DNA from: Collinsella aerofaciens
GTDB lineage: Bacteria; Actinomycetota; Coriobacteriia; Coriobacteriales; Coriobacteriaceae
Reading direction: 5' to 3'
NCBI RefSeq assembly: GCF_028206795.1
Contig: NZ_JAQLFJ010000007.1
Span: forward strand, 55,766 to 119,765
DNA: 64,000 bases
Shown: in pieces, positions 9,617 through 59,406 of the stretch
Layout: every line of letters starts with the position of its first letter
How positions within the stretch are numbered: position 1 is the first letter of the stretch
Position numbers and translations under genes: made by a program
The notes under the pieces: generated by a model
Database searches by the model: none
The model's input: only the letters and a program-made list of their open reading frames with translations
Told to the model about the DNA's origin: nothing

Positions 9617-9647
9617 ATGTGACAAAGGGACAGTCCCTTTGTCACAT
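9617..9647. repeat. GACAAAGGG palindrome, copy 1
   Basis: A perfect 14-bp inverted repeat, ATGTGACAAAGGGA / TCCCTTTGTCACAT, with a 3-nt loop, starting a few bases after the nitroreductase stop codon. Related palindromes occur at 12102, 22989 and 35501, and a degraded one at 42241. There is no clear T tract, so it may act as an mRNA 3'-end stabiliser or a mobile palindrome. Confidence 0.8.
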
Positions 9648-9731
9648 TCCATATCGCCGCGGTGGCCTAAAGGCCGTATAAATGTTTATCTAGCTGGGAA
9701 AACAGTGCCATTCAAACATAGGACGATTACC

Positions 9732-22988: not shown

Positions 22989-23019
22989 ATGCGACAAAGG
23001 GGCTGTCCCTTTGTCGCAT
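22989..23019. repeat. GACAAAGGG palindrome, copy 2 (intra-operon)
   Basis: ATGCGACAAAGGG / CCCTTTGTCGCAT arms around a 5-nt loop, in the 69-bp gap between the MFS and oxidoreductase genes. Relative to copy 1, the stem change TG to CG near the base is matched on the opposite arm, a compensatory difference. It could set differential mRNA stability within the operon. Confidence 0.8.
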
Positions 23020-23027
23020 CGGTAAAA

Positions 23028-27624: not shown

Positions 27625-27748
27625 ATTCGTTGCGGTGCATTGTGTTTGGGTCGTTGAGATGAGTCGATTTGCCCCGAAAGAGGAGGGCATTGACCTTAGG
27701 GTCATGCCCGACGAATGAACGGCAAATCGGCCATCTCGGCGGGCCGAA

Positions 27749-29668
27749 CTACTCCAGTTCAAACGCTCCGGTATAGAGCTGGTAGTAGTACCCGCGCTTG
27801 GCGATCAACTCGTCGTGGTTGCCGCGCTCGATGATGCGGCCGTGGTCAAGGCAGATGATCGCATCGGAGTTGCGCACGGTGGAGAGACGGTGCGCGATGA
27901 CAAACGTCGTGCGACCCTCCATGAGCTTGTCCATGCCTGCCTGCACGATGGCCTCGGTGCGGGTATCGATGCTCGACGTGGCCTCGTCCAGAATCATCGC
28001 CGGCGGATCGGCGACGGCGGCGCGCGCGATCGAAATCAGCTGGCGCTGGCCCTGCGACAGCTGGGCACCGTTGCCGGTGAGCATGGTGTCGTAGCCGTCG
28101 GGCAGGCGGGTGATAAAGTCGTCGGCGCCGGCGAGCTTGGCGGCCTCGATGCACTCCTCGTCGGTGGCGCTCAAGTTGCCGTAGCGGATGTTATCCATGA
28201 CGGTACCAGTGAATAGGTTCACATCCTGCAGCACCACGCCCAGCGAACGGCGCAGATCGGACTTGCGAATCTTGTTGACGTTGATGCCGTCGTAGCGGAT
28301 CTTGCCGTCGGCGATGTCATAGAAGCGGTTGATGAGGTTGGTGATGGTCGTTTTGCCGGCACCGGTGGCGCCGACAAACGCGACCTTCTGGCCCGGCTTG
28401 GCAAATACGGACACGCCGTGCAGCACCTCGTGGTCGGGCGTGTAGCCAAAGTCGACGTTGTCCATGACTAGGTCGCCACGCAGCGGCACGTACTCAATCT
28501 CGCCGGTTGCGCGGTGCGGATGCTTCCACGCCCACATGCCGGTGTGGTGGTCGGCTTCCTCGAGCTGCCAAGTGTCGGGGTTTACCTGCGCGTTGACGAG
28601 CGTCACGTAGCCCTCGTCGGCCTCGGGCTCCTCGTCGATGAGCTCAAAGATGCGGTCGGCGCCGGCAAGGCCCATGACCACGGCGTTGATCTGCTGCGAG
28701 ATCTGGCCGATCTGGCCGCAGAACTGCCTGGTCATGTTAAGGAACGGCACCACGACGGCAATGGACAGGCCCATGCCCGAGATGCTCAGGTTGGGCACGC
28801 CCAGCGCCAAGAAAATGCCGCCGGCCAGTGCGACCAGCACATAGAGCAGGTTGCCCAGGTTCATGAGGATGGGCATGAGGATGTTGGCGTACATGTTGGC
28901 CTTCTGCGAGACTTCGAAGAGTTTCTCGTTGCGCTCATCGAAATCGGCCTCGGCGGCAGATTCGTGGCAGAACGCCTTGACGACCTTCTGGCCGTTCATA
29001 ACCTCCTCAATGTGGCCCTCGACCACGCCGAGTTCGGTCTGCTGCGCGATAAAGAACCGCGCGGAGTTGGAGCCGAGGAGCTTGGTCATAAAGGTCATAA
29101 AGGTGACGCCTGTCACAATGACCAGGCACATCCACACGCTGTAGTACAGCATGATAAAGAACACCGAGCAGATGATGATGACCGTCAAAAGCAGGTTGGG
29201 CAGCGACTGGCTGATCATCTGGCGCAGCGTGTCGATATCGTTGGTGTAGTGGCTCATGATGTCGCCGCGCTGATGCGTGTCGAAGTAGCGGATCGGCAGG
29301 TCCTGCATACGGTTGAACATCATCTCGCGCAGCTTCTCGAGCGAGCCCTGCGTGATGATGGCCATGGCGCGGTTCCAGAAGAGCGAGGACAGGACGCCGA
29401 CGCCGTAGATGCAGGCGAGCGTCGTGACGAGCTGTAGGATCTGCGGGCGCGCGGCTTCCCAATCACCCGACTGCCACGATTCGCTAATAATCTGCAGGGC
29501 ACTTTGAAGGAACATCGGGCCGATGGCGTTGATGATGGCGCAGAGCACCACGCCGGCGGCAACGAGGGGCAAAAGCACGGGATAGAAGCCAAAGAGCGTC
29601 TTGATGAGGCGCGGCAGGGTGCCGCCCTTGCGGTTGAGCGCGCGCTCGGCGGTCGTTGCCTTACTCAT
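27749..29668 (-). CDS. Heterodimeric ABC exporter, catalytic subunit (MarR-linked)
   Basis: A 639-residue half-exporter with six membrane helices and a C-terminal ATPase. Walker A is GATGAGKTT near 434, Walker B MILDEATSS has the catalytic Glu, and the switch His is present (IAHR). The signature is altered to LSQGQ. An insertion of about 30 residues precedes the ATPase domain. The ATG at 29668 follows GGAGG and overlaps the upstream partner's stop by 8 bp, so the two are translationally coupled. It is the last gene of a marR-ABC-ABC operon. Confidence 0.9.
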   Translation of the reverse strand: MSKATTAERALNRKGGTLPRLIKTLFGFYPVLLPLVAAGVVLCAIINAIGPMFLQSALQIISESWQSGDWEAARPQILQLVTTLACIYGVGVLSSLFWNRAMAIITQGSLEKLREMMFNRMQDLPIRYFDTHQRGDIMSHYTNDIDTLRQMISQSLPNLLLTVIIICSVFFIMLYYSVWMCLVIVTGVTFMTFMTKLLGSNSARFFIAQQTELGVVEGHIEEVMNGQKVVKAFCHESAAEADFDERNEKLFEVSQKANMYANILMPILMNLGNLLYVLVALAGGIFLALGVPNLSISGMGLSIAVVVPFLNMTRQFCGQIGQISQQINAVVMGLAGADRIFELIDEEPEADEGYVTLVNAQVNPDTWQLEEADHHTGMWAWKHPHRATGEIEYVPLRGDLVMDNVDFGYTPDHEVLHGVSVFAKPGQKVAFVGATGAGKTTITNLINRFYDIADGKIRYDGINVNKIRKSDLRRSLGVVLQDVNLFTGTVMDNIRYGNLSATDEECIEAAKLAGADDFITRLPDGYDTMLTGNGAQLSQGQRQLISIARAAVADPPAMILDEATSSIDTRTEAIVQAGMDKLMEGRTTFVIAHRLSTVRNSDAIICLDHGRIIERGNHDELIAKRGYYYQLYTGAFELE

Positions 29669-31502
29669 GTGCCTCGCCTCCTTCCTGGGTCTGAGCTTGC
29701 GTTGCGGTCGTGTCGGTGTTGTCTGCCGCCGTGGTCGTATCGCCGGAAACGTCGCCGGCGTCCTCGCCCTCGGCAGACATCTTGTTTTGCGAGGTGAAGG
29801 TCTCGCGGTAGATCTCGCTCGTCTGGAGCAGCTCGTCATGGTTGCCGATCTGCGCGATGCGGCCGCCCTCCATGACGATGATGCGGTCTGCATCCTGCAC
29901 CGAGCTGATGCGCTGGGCAATGATGAGCTTGGTCGTGTTGGGCAGGTAGCTTGCCAGCCCTGCGCGAATCTTGGCGTCGGTCTTGGTGTCGACGGCGCTG
30001 GTGGAGTCGTCAAGAATCAAGATCCTGGGGCGACGCAGCAGAGCGCGGGCGATGCACAGGCGCTGCTTCTGGCCACCAGAGACGTTGGAACCGCCCTGCT
30101 CAATCCAGGTGTTGTAGCCCTTGGGGAAGCCGTCGACAAACTCGTCGGCGCAGGCCAGGTGCGCGGCCTCGCGGACCTCCTCGTCGGTGGCGTTCGGATC
30201 GCCCCAGCGCAGGTTCTCGGCGATCGTGCCGCTAAACAGCACGTTTTTCTGCAGCACCATGGCGACCTGGTGGCGCAGCGCGTCCAGGTCGTAATCGCGC
30301 ACGTCCACGCCGCCTACGCGCACGGTGCCCTCGGTGGCGTCATATAGGCGGGCGATGAGGTTTACCAACGTGGACTTGGCCGAACCGGTGCCGCCGATGA
30401 TGCCGATCGTCTCGCCGCTCTTAATGTGCAGGTCGATGTCGTCGAGCGCCTGGCGCTTCGCATGCTCGGAATACTTAAAGCTCACGTGGTCGAAGTCGAT
30501 GGAGCCGTCGGCCACCTCGTGCACGGGCTCGGCGGGATCGGCGATCGTGGGCTCGGCGGCCAGCACCTCGGTAATACGGTGCGCCGATTCGTCGGCCATG
30601 GTCACCATGACAAAAATCATCGACAGCTGCATCAGGCTCATCAGAATCTGGAAGCCGTAGGTAAAGGTCGAGGACAGCTGGCCCACGTCGAACAGCGTGC
30701 CTTGGCTCGTGATGATGAGCTTGGAACCCAGGTAGATGATGACAACGAACGCGCCGTTGACGCAGATGTTCATCATGGGGTTGTTAAAGGCAAGGAGCTT
30801 CTCGGCGCGGGTGAAGTCCATCTGTACGTCGCGCGCAGCGGTCGCGAACTTTTCCTTCTCGTAGTCCTGGCGCACATAGCTCTTGACCACGCGCATGCCG
30901 GTGACGTTTTCCTCGACGGATTCGTTAAGGGCGTCGTACTTGTGGAATACGCGCGAGAAGATGGGGCGCACCTTGTAGATGATAAAGAACAGGCCAAAGC
31001 CCAGCAGTGGAATCATGGCCAGGTAGACAAACGAGACGCTGCCGCCCATGGCGTAAGCCATGACGAAGGCGAAGACCAGCACCAGTGGCGACCGCACGGC
31101 GATGCGGATGAGCATCATAAAGGCCTGCTGCACGTTGTTGATGTCGGTGGTGAGGCGGGTGACGAGCGAGGAGCTCGAGAACTCGTCGATGTTCGCAAAG
31201 CTGAACGTCTGGATCTTGTAGAACAGATCCTGACGCAGGTTTTTGGCAAAACCGCAGCTTGCGTGGCTACAGGTGACGCCGGCTGCCGCACCAAAGGCGA
31301 GCGACGTCAACGCGATGAGCACGAGGAGACCCGCGGTGGGAAGTATCTCGGCCACGGTGGCACCGTCTTTGATGGCGTCGATCAAGTTGGCGGTGATAAA
31401 TGGAATCAGCATCTCGCAGAGCACCTCGCCAAGCACGAGCAGCGGCGTGGCAACGGCGACCTTCATATAGTCGCGGATGCTTCCCATGAGGGTTTTAATC
31501 AT
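29661..31502 (-). CDS. Heterodimeric ABC exporter, subunit with degenerate ATP site (MarR-linked)
   Basis: A 613-residue half-exporter. Walker A is GGTGSAKST near 367 and the signature VSGGQ is intact. Walker B reads ILDDSTS with Asp in place of the catalytic Glu, and the switch His is Gln (IAQR). This is exactly complementary to the partner downstream. A 40-residue Thr/Glu/Ala-rich C-terminal tail is unusual. Its start overlaps the MarR stop by 8 bp. MarR control suggests drug or toxic-metabolite export. Confidence 0.9.
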   Translation of the reverse strand: MIKTLMGSIRDYMKVAVATPLLVLGEVLCEMLIPFITANLIDAIKDGATVAEILPTAGLLVLIALTSLAFGAAAGVTCSHASCGFAKNLRQDLFYKIQTFSFANIDEFSSSSLVTRLTTDINNVQQAFMMLIRIAVRSPLVLVFAFVMAYAMGGSVSFVYLAMIPLLGFGLFFIIYKVRPIFSRVFHKYDALNESVEENVTGMRVVKSYVRQDYEKEKFATAARDVQMDFTRAEKLLAFNNPMMNICVNGAFVVIIYLGSKLIITSQGTLFDVGQLSSTFTYGFQILMSLMQLSMIFVMVTMADESAHRITEVLAAEPTIADPAEPVHEVADGSIDFDHVSFKYSEHAKRQALDDIDLHIKSGETIGIIGGTGSAKSTLVNLIARLYDATEGTVRVGGVDVRDYDLDALRHQVAMVLQKNVLFSGTIAENLRWGDPNATDEEVREAAHLACADEFVDGFPKGYNTWIEQGGSNVSGGQKQRLCIARALLRRPRILILDDSTSAVDTKTDAKIRAGLASYLPNTTKLIIAQRISSVQDADRIIVMEGGRIAQIGNHDELLQTSEIYRETFTSQNKMSAEGEDAGDVSGDTTTAADNTDTTATQAQTQEGGEAHE

Positions 31503-32019: not shown

Positions 32020-32082
32020 TTAGTTAGGTAGTGGAATTGTTTTGTGCCTAACCAATTTAGGAGCGTGAGAAATCAATGTCAA
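32020..32082 (-). promoter_or_regulatory. marR operon promoter and putative MarR operator
   Basis: Reading leftward, a -35 TTGACA (32082-32077), a 17-bp spacer and a -10 TAAATT (32059-32054) precede the operon. TTAGTTAGG (32020-32028) and CCTAACCAA (32047-32055) form an inverted repeat with one mismatch that overlaps the -10 and transcription start region, the expected position of an autorepressor site. Confidence 0.6.
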
Positions 32083-32099
32083 GGTACCAAACTTATTAA

Positions 32100-32270
32100 G
32101 TTACGGCGTTTTGCCAAACGCCGTAACCGCTCGACGCTGCAAACGTTCCTAGGCGGCAATCTGGCGTTCAATCGTCGGGCATGGCCACAAGGCCTATGCC
32201 CTCCTCTTTCACGCCACCTTGCTCGCTTAGGAACGCTTTCGCTGTCCGTCCTCAACCTGCGGCGTTGCCC
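32100..32270 (+). repeat. Structured intergenic repeat, copy A (divergent)
   Basis: Starts with a 12-bp perfect hairpin GTTACGGCGTTT/AAACGCCGTAAC (32100-32127), then CGACGCTGC. A long stem follows: outer GTTCCTAGGCG (32145-32155) with CGCTTAGGAAC (32224-32234), inner GGGCATGGCC (177-186 of this kilobase) with GGCCTATGCCC. The architecture is that of copies B-D, but most stem bases differ. It fills much of the 424-bp gap upstream of the kinase gene; downstream of it nothing else is recognised except short GGGGAC-type motifs. Confidence 0.75.
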
Positions 32271-35500: not shown

Positions 35501-35533
35501 AATGTGACAAAGGGGCAGTCCCTTTGTCACATT
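35501..35533. repeat. GACAAAGGG palindrome, copy 3
   Basis: AATGTGACAAAGGG / CCCTTTGTCACATT: a perfect 14-bp inverted repeat with a 5-nt loop, between divergent genes upstream of the MFS start. Confidence 0.8.
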
Positions 35534-36574: not shown

Positions 36575-36687
36575 GCGCTCGCCGCTCATTCCGCTATGGC
36601 TACTCAATAATCGCCTGCCGTCCCGTCCCGCCGCCAAGAGTGGGACAATAGCCCTCGACACTATTGTTTACCTTTGGAGGAAGTAGC

Positions 36688-37581
36688 ATGTCTACCGTCA
36701 CTACTATCAAGCGCGGCGGCCTCACCGCGGCCATCGATTCCATGGGCGCCCAGCTCACGAGCCTTGCCCTCAACGGCAACGAGTATCTGTGGCAGGGCGA
36801 CCCCGCCTTTTGGGGCAAGCACGCGCCCATCCTGTTCCCCATTGTGGGCTCGCTGCGCAACAACACGGCAACGTCTGCGGCCGGCACCTGCGAGATGCCG
36901 CGCCACGGACTCGCGCGCATTGTCGAGCACAAGCTGGTCGAGGTTTCGGAGGACGGCTCCTCGGTAACGTACGAGATCACCGATACGCCCGAGTCGCTCA
37001 AGGCGTTCCCGTTCCACTTTAAGCTCAACATGACCTATGCCTTGACCGGCGATTCCACCCTCACGCAGACCTTTGCCGTCACCAATACCGGCGACGTGGA
37101 CCTGCCGTTCTCGGTGGGCGGCCACCCCGCGTTTAACGTACCGGCTCCCGGTGCCGAGGACGAGGCATTCGAGGATTACGAGCTGGCGTTTACCGAGGCT
37201 TGGACGAACGAGGCTCCCATCATCACGCCCGACGGTCTTATGACGTTCGAGGGTAGTTACAAGGCTCCTGATAACTCGGACGTGCTGCCCATCACGCACC
37301 GCAGCTTCGATAACGACGCCATCATGTTCACCGATACCCCGGGCTCCACGCTCACGCTGCGCGGCCGCAAGTCGGGCCACGGCGTCAAGATCGACTTTGA
37401 GGGCTTTAAGTACATTGGCGTGTGGTCTGCCGCCAACGATGCCCCGTTTGTGGCGCTCGAGCCCTGGACCGGTCATACCACCATGGACACCGAGGACGAC
37501 GTCTTTGAGCACAAGGTCAACACCATCACCTTGGCTCCCGGCGCTACCGACAAACGTAGCTTTAGCGTCACCTTGCTCTAG
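36688..37581 (+). CDS. Aldose 1-epimerase family protein (LacX-like)
   Basis: A 297-residue galactose-mutarotase-fold protein. Features include YLWQGDPAFWGKHAPILFPIVG near residue 30, the RHGLAR segment with the conserved His near 73, GGHPAFNVP with the second His near 145, and the C-terminal EPWTGHTT. This arrangement matches the LacX/YeaD-like branch, which interconverts sugar anomers or sugar phosphates. The ATG at 36688 follows GGAGGA. The gene ends directly before structured repeat copy B. Confidence 0.85.
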   Translation: MSTVTTIKRGGLTAAIDSMGAQLTSLALNGNEYLWQGDPAFWGKHAPILFPIVGSLRNNTATSAAGTCEMPRHGLARIVEHKLVEVSEDGSSVTYEITDTPESLKAFPFHFKLNMTYALTGDSTLTQTFAVTNTGDVDLPFSVGGHPAFNVPAPGAEDEAFEDYELAFTEAWTNEAPIITPDGLMTFEGSYKAPDNSDVLPITHRSFDNDAIMFTDTPGSTLTLRGRKSGHGVKIDFEGFKYIGVWSAANDAPFVALEPWTGHTTMDTEDDVFEHKVNTITLAPGATDKRSFSVTLL

Positions 37582-37584
37582 AGG

Positions 37585-37735
37585 TTCCGCCGTTCTGACG
37601 AACGGCGGGCCGGTCGACGCTGCGCGCCGCCCAGAGCGACAATTTGTCATTCAAAAGGCATGGCATGACCAGAAGGTCTATGCCTTGCCTTTTTCATGCC
37701 AACTTGTTTGCTCTGGGCGGCGCTCGCTGGCATTG
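37585..37735 (+). repeat. Structured intergenic repeat, copy B
   Basis: Directly after the epimerase stop. First hairpin: CCGCCGTT (37587-37594) with AACGGCGG (37601-37608). Then GGTCGACGCTGCGC. Outer stem GCCGCCCAGAGCGACAA (to 37642) with TTGTTTGCTCTGGGCGGC (from 37704). Inner stem AAAAGGCATGGCATGACC (37653-37670) with GGTCTATGCCTTGCC (37675-37689), loop AGAA. The single-stranded AATTTGTCATTC and TTCATGCCAACTTG are the same as in copies C and D. Confidence 0.85.
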
Positions 37736-37859
37736 CCAAAACATCGACGCTCCCAATGACTACCGTGTGTCTATTAATTTTTCGAGCTTGTACTGCGCTG
37801 CTGGTCGCTGGCGTATATCCTGTCTTGTTGTCAGCAAAACGAAATAGGGAAGGCACCAG

Positions 37860-42240: not shown

Positions 42241-42270
42241 AATGCGACAAGGCGATAGTCCCTTTGTTAG
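42241..42270. repeat. Degraded GACAAAGGG palindrome
   Basis: AATGCGACAAGG ... AGTCCCTTTGTTAGC directly after the peptidase stop is a decayed relative of the palindromes at 9617, 22989 and 35501; the arms no longer pair well. The text TTGGGGACGTCC follows at about 42274, a motif also present near 43778. Confidence 0.6.
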
Positions 42271-42488
42271 CCGTTGGGGACGTCCACTCATTCCGTGCGG
42301 GTTATATGCAGGTTTGCCTGCGCACGCTATCATGTATGGGTTAGACCGCAATTATGTACCCCATACGCGAAGGGATGCGCATGTATCTGAAGATCGACAT
42401 GTTCTAGCCGGGCTTACCCCCGCAGCGGCGCCCCGCGCCCCATCAACTCTGCCGATTTTCACCTTCACGCATATAAAGGAGTCCAGCC

Positions 42489-43556
42489 ATGCGCGACAAG
42501 CTCGAAAAGATCATCAAGGCCTACGAGGAACTCGAGAAGAAACTTTCCGACCCGGCCGTCGCCTCCGATATCAAGGAGTTCACGCGTCTCAACAAGGAGT
42601 ACGCGCACCAGTCCGACCTCATCGCCGCCTCGCGCGAGTACATCGGCGCGCTCGATGACATCGAGGCTGCCAAGGAAATGCTGCACGATACCACCGATGC
42701 TGACGAGAAAGAGATGCTCCAGATGGACATCTCCGAGAACGAGGACAAGCTTCCCCAGCTCGAGGAAGACATCAAGTACATGCTCATTCCGAGCGACCCC
42801 AACGACGACAAGAACACCATCGTCGAGATTCGCTCCGCCGCCGGTGGCGACGAGGCGGCCATCTTCGCCGGCGACCTGTACAAGATGTATCAGCGCTTTT
42901 GCGAGTCGCGTGGCTGGAAGACCACCGTGCTCGATTCCAGCCCCAGCGAGGCCGGCGGCTTCAAGTCCATCGAGTTCAAGGTCGAGGGCGACCGCGTCTA
43001 CTCCGTTATGAAGTACGAGTCCGGCGTGCACCGTGTCCAGCGCGTCCCCAAGACCGAGTCCCAGGGCCGCATCCAGACTTCAACGGCTACCGTCGCCGTG
43101 CTTCCCGAGGCCGAGGAAATCGACGTCCAGATCAACCAGTCCGACTTGCGCATCGACACCTACTGCGCCTCCGGCCCTGGCGGTCAGTGCGTTAACACCA
43201 CCTACTCCGCCGTGCGCATCACCCACCTGCCCACCAACACCGTGGTGCAGTCGCAGGAGCAGCGTTCCCAGATCCAGAACCGCGAGGTCTGCATGCAGAT
43301 GCTGCGCGCCCGTCTGTACGAGATGGAACTCGAGAAGCAGCAGGCCGAGCTCGGTGCCGAGCGCCAGAGCCAGATCGGCCACGGCAACCGTTCCGAGAAG
43401 ATCCGTACCTACAACCAGCCCCAGGACCGCGTGACCGATCACCGTATCGGCTTCAACTCCACCTACAATGGCGTCCTTCTGGGCGATCAGCTCGGCACCG
43501 TCATCGAGGCGCTCGCCGCCGCCGAGCGAGCCGAGAAGCTGGCTCAGGCCGTGTAG
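42489..43556 (+). CDS. prfA: Peptide chain release factor 1
   Basis: A 355-residue class I release factor recognising UAA and UAG. The tripeptide region RVPKTESQG (PKT at 187-189) is the PxT type of RF1 rather than the SPF of RF2. The peptidyl-hydrolysis motif GGQ is at residues 231-233 in SGPGGQCVNTTYSAVR, where Cys follows GGQ instead of the usual His. The C-terminal domain is complete. A strong AAAGGAG site precedes the ATG. It heads the prfA-prmC-sua5 housekeeping cluster. Its stop codon touches structured repeat copy C. Confidence 0.95.
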   Translation: MRDKLEKIIKAYEELEKKLSDPAVASDIKEFTRLNKEYAHQSDLIAASREYIGALDDIEAAKEMLHDTTDADEKEMLQMDISENEDKLPQLEEDIKYMLIPSDPNDDKNTIVEIRSAAGGDEAAIFAGDLYKMYQRFCESRGWKTTVLDSSPSEAGGFKSIEFKVEGDRVYSVMKYESGVHRVQRVPKTESQGRIQTSTATVAVLPEAEEIDVQINQSDLRIDTYCASGPGGQCVNTTYSAVRITHLPTNTVVQSQEQRSQIQNREVCMQMLRARLYEMELEKQQAELGAERQSQIGHGNRSEKIRTYNQPQDRVTDHRIGFNSTYNGVLLGDQLGTVIEALAAAERAEKLAQAV

Positions 43557-43737
43557 GTTACGCGGTTTTACCAAACCGCGTAACCGGTCGACGCTGCGCG
43601 CCGCCCAGAGCGACAATTTGTCATTCAAAAGGCAAGGCATGACCAGAAGGTCTATGCCTTGCCTTCTTCATGCCAACTTGTTCGCTCTGGACGTCGCTCG
43701 CTGTCCGTCCTCTACCTGCGGCGTTGCCTTGCCCCGG
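43556..43737 (+). repeat. Structured intergenic repeat, copy C
   Basis: Begins at the prfA stop. First hairpin GGTTACGCGGTTT/AAACCGCGTAACC (43556-43585), then GGTCGACGCTGCGCGCCGCC. Outer stem CCCAGAGCGACAA with TTGTTCGCTCTGG (from about 43679). Inner stem AAAAGGCAAGGCATGACC with GGTCTATGCCTTGCC, loop AGAA. The tail CTGTCCGTCCTCTACCTGCG matches copy A's tail closely, marking the 3' end of the element. Confidence 0.85.
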
Positions 43738-57945: not shown

Positions 57946-57957
57946 TGCAGGTTGCCT

Positions 57958-59184
57958 ATGTTTAACAAGAAACCCCTAGCGGATAACACCCGAAGACCCT
58001 CGACTGGTGCGCAGGCCAAGATCTACAGCCGCGACAATGTCGCACGCTATTCCGAGCGCGCCCGTCAGCGCCGTCGCGGCCGCACGGTTCGCCGCGTAGC
58101 TCTCATCGCCGTACTCGGCGTGCTGCTGAGCGCCACGACTGCTGCGGGTCTGTGGTTTGCCACTATCATGGGCAAGCTTGGCGACTCCAATGTCATTACC
58201 AACAACCTGCGCCAGATTCTGGTCGATACCAATGAGGCAAAAGATCCGTTCTACGTGTTGCTTCTTGGTACCGACGGTCGTCCGGGCGAGGATACGTATC
58301 GTGCCGACTCGATTATCCTGGCACGCATCGACCCCACGCAAAAGCAGGCGACGCTCATTTCCGTTCCGCGCGACACCAAGGTCGTGTACAAGGGCGAGAC
58401 CATGAAGATCAACGCCTGCCACACCGTTGGCGGCGCCGAGGCCATGGTCCAGGCGGTCAACGAGCTGTGCGGCGTGCAGATTTCTCACTATGCTGAGGTC
58501 AGCTTTGACGGCATGCAGGCGCTGATTGATTCGGTTGGCGGTATCGACATCAACGCGACCGACGACGTCGACGATCCCGAGCACCTGGATATTAAGATTA
58601 CCGCTGGTCAGCAGCATATGGACGGCGCTACTGCCCTTACCTATGCCCGCTGCCGCTACACCTATGCCGACGGCGATTACACGCGCATGCGCCATCAGCG
58701 TCAGGTGCTTGGCGCCCTTGCCAGCCAGATTCTCAATAACTTCGATGCCACGAAGATCTTTGGCCTGGTTAATTCGCTGTCCGATATGCTCGTAACCGAT
58801 ATGAGCGTTCAGGATATCGTCTCCACGGTTAATGCCATGCGCGGCATGGATGTCGAGGGCATCTACTCGGCCAACCTGCCTTCGTATGCTGACGACAGCA
58901 CTATGATCGACGGCGTGAGCTATGTCTTTGTCTACGAAGACGAGCTTAAGGAAATGATGGCCCGCGTCGACGCCGGTGAGGATCCCAAGGGCCCCAACAC
59001 CATGGGCCTTTCAGACGGCTCCAGCTCCACGATCGGTGACCTCAACAACAATACGTCCGAGGACTACGCATATGGCACCGCGACCTCGTCGGGTGGCTCG
59101 GACGATTCCGACGATTCGAGCGACGGCTCCGATTACTACGAAGAGCCCACCGGCGACGGCAACGGCTACGAAGCCAACTACTAA
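57958..59184 (+). CDS. LytR-CpsA-Psr (LCP) family cell-wall glycopolymer ligase
   Basis: A 408-residue protein with an N-terminal cytoplasmic basic stretch and one membrane helix (about 40-65). The LCP domain has VLLLGTDGRPGEDTYRADSI, LISVPRDTKV and the Arg-rich YARCRYTYADGDYTRMRHQ. LCP enzymes attach teichoic acids or polysaccharides to peptidoglycan. The C-terminal 60 residues are Ser/Asp/Gly-rich and disordered. The ATG at 57958 is preferred over TTG at 57952. It is 12 bp after murA. Confidence 0.92.
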   Translation: MFNKKPLADNTRRPSTGAQAKIYSRDNVARYSERARQRRRGRTVRRVALIAVLGVLLSATTAAGLWFATIMGKLGDSNVITNNLRQILVDTNEAKDPFYVLLLGTDGRPGEDTYRADSIILARIDPTQKQATLISVPRDTKVVYKGETMKINACHTVGGAEAMVQAVNELCGVQISHYAEVSFDGMQALIDSVGGIDINATDDVDDPEHLDIKITAGQQHMDGATALTYARCRYTYADGDYTRMRHQRQVLGALASQILNNFDATKIFGLVNSLSDMLVTDMSVQDIVSTVNAMRGMDVEGIYSANLPSYADDSTMIDGVSYVFVYEDELKEMMARVDAGEDPKGPNTMGLSDGSSSTIGDLNNNTSEDYAYGTATSSGGSDDSDDSSDGSDYYEEPTGDGNGYEANY

Positions 59185-59355
59185 GTTACGGCGTTTTACC
59201 AAACGCCGTAACGGCTCGACGCTGCGCGCCGCCCAAGGCGACAATTTGTCATTCAAAAGGCAGGGCATGACCAGAAGGTCAATGCCCTGCCTTTTTCATG
59301 CCAACTTGTTCGCCTTGGACGTCGCTCGCTGACGTTGGCTCAACCTGCGATGTTG
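59185..59355 (+). repeat. Structured intergenic repeat, copy D
   Basis: Starts right after the LCP stop. First hairpin GTTACGGCGTTT/AAACGCCGTAAC (59185-59212), identical in stem to copy A. Outer stem CCCAAGGCGACAA with TTGTTCGCCTTGG: both arms differ from copies B and C, keeping pairing. Inner stem AAAAGGCAGGGCATGACC with GGTCAATGCCCTGCC, again changed on both arms. The loop AGAA and linkers are unchanged. Confidence 0.85.
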
Positions 59356-59378: not shown

Positions 59379-59406
59379 CGCCCCGTTCTCTATAGAGGAC
59401 GGGGCG
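59379..59406 (-). terminator. Terminator of the peptidase T gene
   Basis: CGCCCCGT/ACGGGGCG stem with extra pairing in the loop (TCTC/GAGG); read leftward it continues into GTTTTTG. It is about 30 bp beyond the pepT stop. Confidence 0.8.

What the first reader, a model, noticed from the sequence alone, without database searches (positions are those of the whole stretch)
37585..37735. Four-copy ~170-bp intergenic element with compensatory changes in three stems
Copies at about 32100, 37585, 43556 and 59185 share one fold: a 5' hairpin, then a long stem with an outer and an inner part and an AGAA-type loop. All stems differ between copies while still pairing. First hairpin: GGCGTTT/AAACGCC, CCGCCGTT/AACGGCGG and GCGGTTT/AAACCGC. 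Outer stem: CCCAGAGC/GCTCTGG versus CCCAAGGC/GCCTTGG. Inner stem: GGCATGGC, GGCAAGGC/GCCTTGCC and GGCAGGGC/GCCCTGCC. Linkers (AATTTGTCATTC; TTCATGCCAACTTG) are constant. Seen directly in the sequence: the pairings. Inference: selection for an RNA or DNA structure. Three copies begin within a few bases of a stop codon. It could be a non-coding RNA family, a mobile palindromic element (MITE/REPIN-like) or a processed 3' end.
Basis: seen in the sequence. Interest (0 to 1): 0.8.

Follow-up and report, generated by a model that had tools for sequence, protein, structure and literature searches.

The report
Hairpin repeats abutting stop codons
Collinsella gut bacteria carry dozens of copies of a long folded DNA repeat that usually starts right after the stop codons of ordinary genes; its main stem changes in matched pairs probably because DNA copying repairs one arm from the other, so the matched changes alone are weak evidence for a new working RNA.

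Summary
In detail: the four copies are real, share one fold, and their stems differ while pairing. They belong to a dispersed family: 25-47 model matches in 21 of 43 genomes of the genus; a long-hairpin model matches 102 of 296 genomes of the class. No Rfam family reaches its cut-off in the window, and Collinsella-1 is a separate RNA. The interpretation needs changing. (1) Covariation is very strong, but in the long hairpin G.U and A.C mismatches are about equal (59 vs 73; tRNA control 27 vs 0). Two copies have internal loops rewritten into perfect pairing, and tips are inverted at two sites. That suggests replication template switching plus module exchange rather than selection on the RNA. 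The first hairpin does show G.U excess (25 vs 5), so it may differ. (2) The strongest regularity is position: the first hairpin begins -1 to +5 nt from a same-strand stop codon in 21 of 26, 18 of 28 and 3 of 4 copies. I read it as a REP-like palindromic repeat of a new, long, two-hairpin type in 3' UTRs, probably acting on translation termination or mRNA 3' ends (inference). Its mobiliser is unknown.

The parts
32076..32099 (+). 7-codon ORF (MSRYQTY) whose TAA directly precedes copy W1; translation not shown
   Evidence: read; similar sequence before the G003 copy at 1614491
32097..32244 (+). copy W1: first hairpin 32100-32127, linker, long hairpin of a different subtype
36664..37581 (+). aldose-epimerase-like gene ending 2 nt before the first hairpin of W2
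   Evidence: PF01263
37581..37729 (+). copy W2: first hairpin from 37584, linker with GACGCTGC, long hairpin, TCGCTG foot
37730..37754 (+). variable tail; similar tails follow other copies
42489..43556 (+). prfA (peptide chain release factor 1), TAG directly before W3
   Evidence: TIGR00019
43554..43703 (+). copy W3; first hairpin 43557-43584, linker, long hairpin, TCGCTG foot
   Evidence: orthologous site in 20 genomes
57952..59184 (+). LytR/CpsA/Psr family gene, TAA directly before W4
59182..59331 (+). copy W4; first hairpin 59185-59212, long hairpin
59379..59406 (+). separate intrinsic-terminator-like hairpin downstream of W4
27648..27748 (-). fifth copy, long hairpin only, shortly past the stop of an ABC transporter gene (27749-30013, -)

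Best explanation
A REP-like dispersed palindromic repeat of a new, long, two-hairpin type. Unit of about 150 nt: a 12-bp hairpin, a GACGCTGC linker, a long hairpin with conserved internal loops and one bulged T, then a TCGCTG foot and a variable tail. SHOWN: in most copies checked it lies on the coding strand with its first hairpin -1 to +5 nt from the stop codon, and copies stay at the same genes across strains while their modules differ in new combinations. INFERRED WITH GOOD SUPPORT: paired changes in the long hairpin arise largely because replication template switching copies one arm from the other and copies exchange modules; symmetric G.U and A.C mismatches, loop erasure and tip inversion are the footprints. 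INFERRED (about 0.35): transcribed as part of the 3' UTR, the first hairpin meets the terminating ribosome and modulates termination, stalling or 3'-end decay of the upstream mRNA, as reported for E. coli REPs within 15 nt of a stop codon. How it reaches new stop codons is unknown.
For: Copy number: 36 of 43 genus genomes match R1, 21 of 43 with 25-47 matches, counts that include some antisense self-matches. Position: 21 of 26 (G003), 18 of 28 (G024) and 3 of 4 (window) copies start -1..+5 nt from the stop of a same-strand ORF of 60 aa or more; rough binomial P about 5e-33 for G003. Of 82 copies in named records (not independent), 33 start within 20 nt of a same-strand stop and 18 at 29-43 nt, about the length of the first hairpin. 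Orthology: at the prfA site 20 of 20 loci read from element-rich genomes keep the element, with three body types (10, 5, 5) and several first-hairpin types; 10 of 10 outgroup loci read lack it. Template switching: long hairpin G.U 59 vs A.C 73, close pairs 134 vs 306, tRNAs 27 vs 0; G003 152546 has a 28-bp perfect repeat across normally mismatched loops, a second copy 22 bp; inverted tips. IS110 insertion at the CGCT of the foot, a trait known for REPs.
Against: No expression data were seen. The first hairpin shows more G.U than A.C (25 vs 5 and 26 vs 4 on two alignments; 24 vs 13 on distinct arms), though 18 of 26 such cells come from two columns; RNA selection there is not excluded. Weak selection on a very stable hairpin could also give G.U near A.C. 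REP features fail: length, GTAG/CGTC tag, RAYT flanks. Five of 26 G003 and 10 of 28 G024 copies do not fit the -1..+5 rule. On the 3' side 15 of 65 copies lie within 20 nt of an opposite-strand ORF stop, so the orientation bias is strong but not shown to be absolute. RepRanger puts only 446 of 4,072 predicted E. coli REPs within 15 nt of a stop (PMC12306157). Internal loops are kept in nearly all copies, so something selects for them.
Confidence: 0.6

Rival explanations
1. A structured 3'-UTR RNA (cis-regulator or processed sRNA) kept by selection for pairing in the transcript.
For: Start at stop codons, mostly in sense; conserved internal loops and motifs TTCAATCGTC / CCTCCTCTTTCA; very strong covariation; G.U excess in the first hairpin; site kept in 20 loci.
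Against: In the long hairpin A.C equals or exceeds G.U (73 vs 59; 53 vs 40 on a second alignment), unlike tRNAs; loss of the body at sites that keep the first hairpin; loop erasure tolerated; body type at one gene varies; no common function among upstream genes was apparent by eye.
Confidence: 0.25
2. An actively mobile non-autonomous element (MITE/REPIN) moved by a transposase that prefers sites just past stop codons.
For: Dispersed copies; 11 of 33 G024 sites and 9 of 31 G003 sites unmatched in the other genome; tandem and nested copies; Y1 transposases in 37 of 43 genomes, and of the 6 lacking them 5 have no R1 match and 1 a weak one.
Against: Long-hairpin matches do occur in three of those six (G015, G017, G039). 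Of 13 stretches holding Y1 genes, only two have a copy: one about 3 kb away, one interrupted by an IS200-like element. The RAYT-like gene of G003 and G001 is flanked by another repeat (two other stretches showed no flanking repeat). No clean empty site with duplication recognised; most sites shared.
Confidence: 0.25
3. Transcription terminators.
For: Position after genes; strong hairpins.
Against: No T run; scans find no terminator-like site inside W3 or W4, but one downstream of each; W1 and W2 were not scanned.
Confidence: 0.05
4. attC-like recombination sites of dispersed cassettes.
For: Hairpin with unpaired bases directly after stop codons, variable stems, target of an IS110-family element; resemblance to attC recalled, not tested.
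Against: Upstream genes look like ordinary chromosomal genes, several at conserved sites; no integrase was looked for.
Confidence: 0.02

Closest known systems
REP / BIME repeats and the GTAG or CGTC REP families (PMC3733652: abstract, sections 6 and 15 read)
   Same: Extragenic, dispersed, palindromic; placed close to the 3' ends of ORFs, GTAG REPs often supplying a TAG stop. REPs as IS110 targets: PMC11208160 (passages), PMC1525189 (listing only).
   Different: About 150 nt in two hairpins instead of 20-40 bp; no constant GTAG or CGTC tag at the foot; not found beside a RAYT. Collinsella, Eggerthella, Atopobium, Slackia and Actinobacteria do not occur in that paper's main text.
Stop-proximal E. 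coli REPs reported to stall ribosomes (passages on its ref. 17 in PMC12306157; the original not read)
   Same: Hairpin within 15 nt of the stop codon.
   Different: Proposed there for 260 of 496 E. coli REPs; here -1..+5 nt for 42 of 58 copies. Effect untested here.
RNA hairpins made and kept by template switching (PMC8794818, passages read)
   Same: Paired stem changes, loop inversion and stem extension from one template switch.
   Different: The passages seen concern rRNA genes; here a dispersed repeat with A.C as common as G.U in the long stem.
REPINs / RAYT systems (PMC3116915, search listing only)
   Same: Short non-autonomous repeats in many copies.
   Different: The RAYT-like gene here lies between copies of another repeat, CATTGGGGACAGAC.
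Collinsella-1 RNA, RF01700 (PMC2864571, one passage)
   Same: Same genus.
   Different: One match in each of 2 of 3 genomes, at other places.

Membership tests
REP (repetitive extragenic palindrome) | dispersed, extragenic, many copies | tested here: met
   25-47 matches in 21 of 43 genomes; 42 of 58 copies at gene ends
REP (repetitive extragenic palindrome) | 20-40 bp single palindrome | tested here: not met
   about 150 nt, two hairpins; only the 28-nt first hairpin would fit
REP (repetitive extragenic palindrome) | unpaired GTAG or CGTC tag at one foot | tested here: not met
   bases before the first hairpin vary, TAG or TAA being the gene's stop; CGTC occurs in an internal loop, not at the foot
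REP (repetitive extragenic palindrome) | association with a RAYT gene (GTAG type) | tested here: not met
   no adjacent copy in the 13 Y1 stretches searched except one split by an IS200-like element; one RAYT-like family flanked by another repeat. Not all Y1 genes of the genus were searched
REP (repetitive extragenic palindrome) | target of IS110-family insertion (frequent, not strictly defining) | tested here: met
   IS110 transposase (NF033542 over cut-off) joined at CGCT of the foot in the left junctions found
MITE | terminal inverted repeats and target-site duplication | tested here: inconclusive
   14 site pairs compared by eye; no clean empty site or duplication recognised; no systematic search made
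Rfam RNA family | match above gathering score | tested here: not met
   0 matches in the window; at W2 the best weak match is mir-789, 30.6 bits vs cut-off 100, E 0.00045
Collinsella-1 RNA (RF01700) | match to the model at the element | tested here: not met
   one match each in G001 and G024, none in G003; the places are not among the elements listed
Structured RNA kept by selection | G.U tolerated far more than A.C in stems | tested here: inconclusive
   long hairpin not met, 59 vs 73 and 40 vs 53; first hairpin G.U in excess, 25 vs 5 and 26 vs 4, 24 vs 13 on distinct arms
Intrinsic terminator | GC-rich hairpin plus T run | tested here: not met
   (W3 and W4 only)
attC site | core boxes and integron integrase | not tested
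   resemblance only

The most novel reading that the evidence does not exclude
A genome-wide system of interchangeable hairpins placed exactly at translation stops: the cell, or a mobile element that targets stop codons, keeps a double hairpin at the first bases past the stop of dozens of ordinary genes (prfA by family search; rpoC, lysS, tyrS and others named by eye), forming a 3'-UTR regulon acting on termination and mRNA 3' ends. The first hairpin, which the ribosome meets, is under RNA-level selection (hence its G.U excess), while the long one only needs its shape and loops and so is freely rewritten.
Probability: 0.25. Interest if true: 0.8.

Novelty: new variant of a known kind. Interest (0 to 1): 0.55.

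Why it matters
It is a case where covariation, the usual evidence for an RNA structure, is at least for the long stem better explained by how palindromic DNA mutates; a G.U versus A.C count should accompany covariation claims for palindromic repeats. If the stop-codon placement is functional, common gut bacteria carry dozens of natural constructs for testing what a hairpin at the stop codon does to termination. It also describes an unnamed repeat at which several assembly contigs end and into which IS110 and IS200-like elements insert.

Tried and rejected
Rfam: nothing at gathering in the window, nothing credible at W2 with a permissive threshold. Collinsella-1: separate. RAYT mobilisation: Y1 transposases co-occur by genome, but the one RAYT-like family with flanking repeats carries another REP. 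IS200 origin: the IS200-like gene inside one copy is an insertion; the same IS sits elsewhere without the element. IS110 origin: the shared long tail of several copies is an IS110 inserted at the foot. Terminator reading: no T run. Insertion that truncates genes: of 16 unshared sites queried 14 pairs were read; 13 are gene ends; by my reading the C-terminus is the same in 8 and differs by one or two codons in 5. At 3 of the 14 the counterpart keeps remnants, so a deletion is likely (L243, L251, L253). CGTC-tag reading: CGTC lies in an internal loop. Rows dropped: alignment A1 held a misplaced row (L014) and was replaced by A2, from which L003 (inverted tip, no first hairpin) was left out. A3 and A5 held 1 and 6 antisense self-matches; include the ones of their alignments, and repeats the counts without them (A5 two-sided changes then fall from 201 to 68). 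In one search, 46 of 156 sequences had tips that my patterns did not class, and one of the 8 'inverted' is an antisense match. Literature: listings (8 of 12 shown) showed no description of this repeat; subscription papers are mostly not held.

Full report
OBSERVATION. The four copies are real. A covariance model (R1) built from 25 copies, W1-W4 among them, finds them at 32097-32244, 37581-37729, 43554-43703 and 59182-59331, and a long-hairpin-only copy at 27648-27748 on the - strand. The other - strand matches in the window are the palindromes matching themselves, apart from one marginal hit at 43524-43587 (E 0.011). W1-W4 fold about 10 standard deviations below shuffles, the fifth copy about 4. 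Anatomy: a 12-bp hairpin with a four-base loop; a linker with GACGCTGC; a long hairpin with an outer stem, a bulged T, a CAA/TTG clamp, a small internal loop, a 6-bp variable stem, a TCAA/TTTC internal loop, an inner stem and an AGAA-type loop; a TCGCTG foot; then a variable tail.

EXTENT. The window's own assembly is not held. The nearest genome, G001, has contig lengths (33029, 58926, 24963) equal to those of Collinsella aerofaciens BSD2780120874b_170522_H1 records, so I take the genus to be Collinsella. In 43 genus genomes 36 match R1 at E <= 0.001: 21 have 25-47 matches, one incomplete genome has 12, five have 6-16 and sixteen have 0-3; counts include some antisense self-matches. A model of the long hairpin alone (R2) matches 54 of 65 genomes of the family, 5 of 6 genera, and 102 of 296 of the class, 30 of 125 genera, the matched genomes being listed as the same order (E <= 1e-6, 13 candidates scored per genome). 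I did not read the matches outside the genus.

POSITION. Of the copies that reach E <= 1e-14, 21 of 26 in G003 and 18 of 28 in G024, and 3 of 4 in the window, have the first hairpin -1 to +5 nt from the stop of a same-strand ORF of 60 aa or more. The 42 G003 and G024 copies with such an ORF end nearby (39 of them within -1..+5) use TAG 31 times, TAA 11, TGA 0; TGA is rare in general, 3 of 48 in a rough gene set of the window, so this is not notable. A rough chance level of 1.7% of strand-positions between genes gives P about 5e-33 for G003; the baseline is crude. The five G003 misfits: two behind an older partial copy (L106, L115), one behind a terminator-like hairpin (L094), one behind the tiny ORF as in W1 (L108), one without an ORF (L110). 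Of 82 copies in named records, many of them orthologous, 66 have a same-strand stop of an ORF of 80 aa or more within 200 nt upstream; the gap to the long hairpin is 20 nt or less in 33 and 29-43 nt in 18, and 15 of 17 of the latter that were printed show the first hairpin after the stop. On the other side 65 have an opposite-strand ORF stop, 15 of them within 20 nt, the rest spread out. So sense placement is the rule but was not shown to be absolute. Another palindrome, GTGACAAAGGGACAGTCCCTTTGTCAC, starts 3, 8 and 1 nt past three stop codons of the window, and a copy stands in the place of W2 in G019. So stop-abutting palindromes may be a general habit here.

HISTORY OF SITES. Past prfA (the W3 site) 30 loci were read: all 20 from element-rich genomes carry the element directly after the stop (three of them cut short by a contig end or another repeat), the 10 others do not. 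Body type is one of three (10, 5 and 5 loci), combined with different first hairpins and tails. Past the epimerase gene (W2 site) 20 of 21 loci from element-rich genomes carry it, 9 with the first hairpin mostly deleted, four cut by other repeats. Between G003 and G024, 22 of 31 listed G003 sites are shared, and 11 of 33 G024 sites are unmatched. Of 14 unshared sites read, three counterparts show remnants, so deletion; at the others gain and loss cannot be told apart.

WHY THE STEMS COVARY. On 105 distinct rows 46 of 53 pairs change on both sides, 1027 two-sided cells against 318 in shuffles, score 0.478 against 0.150 (the alignment was fitted to the model). Selection on an RNA helix should tolerate G.U and purge A.C. 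Whole unit: 24 vs 22 on the MAFFT alignment, 85 vs 78 of 5530 cells on the larger one. Long hairpin: 59 vs 73, and 40 vs 53 on the second set without antisense rows. First hairpin: 25 vs 5 and 26 vs 4, 24 vs 13 on distinct arms, 18 of 26 such cells being in two columns. Among close pairs, one-sided changes in the long hairpin leave 134 G.U and 306 A.C in the first set, 68 and 81 in the second, with 391 and 68 two-sided changes against 594 and 209 one-sided (pairs overlap and are not independent). Seventeen tRNAs of the fetched sequences give 27 vs 0, with the caution that a tRNA finder itself prefers G.U to A.C. Footprints: G003 152546 (L092) has a perfect 28-bp inverted repeat that runs through loops mismatched elsewhere; L044 has a 22-bp case; no other of the 156 sequences reaches 22. 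The tip is inverted in L092 and in eight W2-site loci, probably one event. Such signs are described for template switching (PMC8794818, passages). So templated rewriting explains the long hairpin well; for the first hairpin RNA-level selection remains possible. That internal loops are otherwise kept suggests selection on them by something.

MOBILITY AND NEIGHBOURS. Y1 transposases occur in 37 of 43 genomes; of the six without, five have no R1 match and one a weak one, but three of the six have long-hairpin matches (G015 3, G017 5, G039 1); two genomes have Y1 and no R1 match. Of 13 stretches with Y1 genes, two hold a copy. Of four stretches tested for repeats, the two holding one RAYT-like gene (NF047646 below cut-off, PF01797 over it, for the G003 gene) show it between CATTGGGGACAGAC repeats; the other two show none. 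An IS110-family element (NF033542 over cut-off) joins CGCT of the element foot in the left junctions found, with CTG resuming in three right junctions. One copy is split by an IS200-like element. That IS110 elements aim at REPs is known (PMC11208160, passages; PMC1525189, listing).

HOW IT MOST LIKELY WORKS. Shown: a REP-like repeat held at stop codons, with modules recombined between strains. Well supported: templated rewriting of the long stem. Inferred: it is transcribed and its first hairpin meets the ribosome at termination. E. coli REPs within 15 nt of a stop are reported to stall ribosomes (PMC12306157, passages), though that tool finds only 446 of 4,072 predicted REPs so placed. I give this step about 0.35. 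What places it at new stop codons is open.

KNOWN OR NEW. It fails REP-defining features (length, tag, RAYT) and matches no RNA family in the searches made, so I file it as a new variant of a known kind, not as a member of a named REP family. PMC8040213 (passages and section 8) discusses palindromic candidate RNAs of the gut, none described there as this one; its tables were not open to me.

Noticed in passing
window 9617-9648, 22989-23020, 42242-42273, 35502-35533: Another palindromic repeat (GTGACAAAGGGACAGTCCCTTTGTCAC); three of these four start 1-8 nt past a stop codon of the rough gene set, and a copy replaces W2 in genome G019.
   Followed up: partly
L117:2614-3672 (G003) and L124:2963-4010 (G001): A RAYT-like Y1 transposase gene lies between inverted copies of a CATTGGGGACAGAC repeat, a distinct REP-like family; similar sequence follows several elements.
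   Followed up: partly
L078, L126, L001, L007, L009, L011, L046, L316, L356: An IS110-family element inserts at the TCGCT foot of the repeat (probable core CT); its ends carry inverted GGATTGGGTCAT.
   Followed up: partly
L088, about 1310-2080: IS200-like element inserted inside the long hairpin of one copy.
   Followed up: partly
window 32076-32099: Seven-codon ORF (MSRYQTY) ending exactly at W1, preceded by an AGGAG; similar in G003.
   Followed up: no
G001:C3:33270-33466, G024:C1:3652-3848: Single matches of the Collinsella-1 RNA (RF01700); none found in G003.
   Followed up: no
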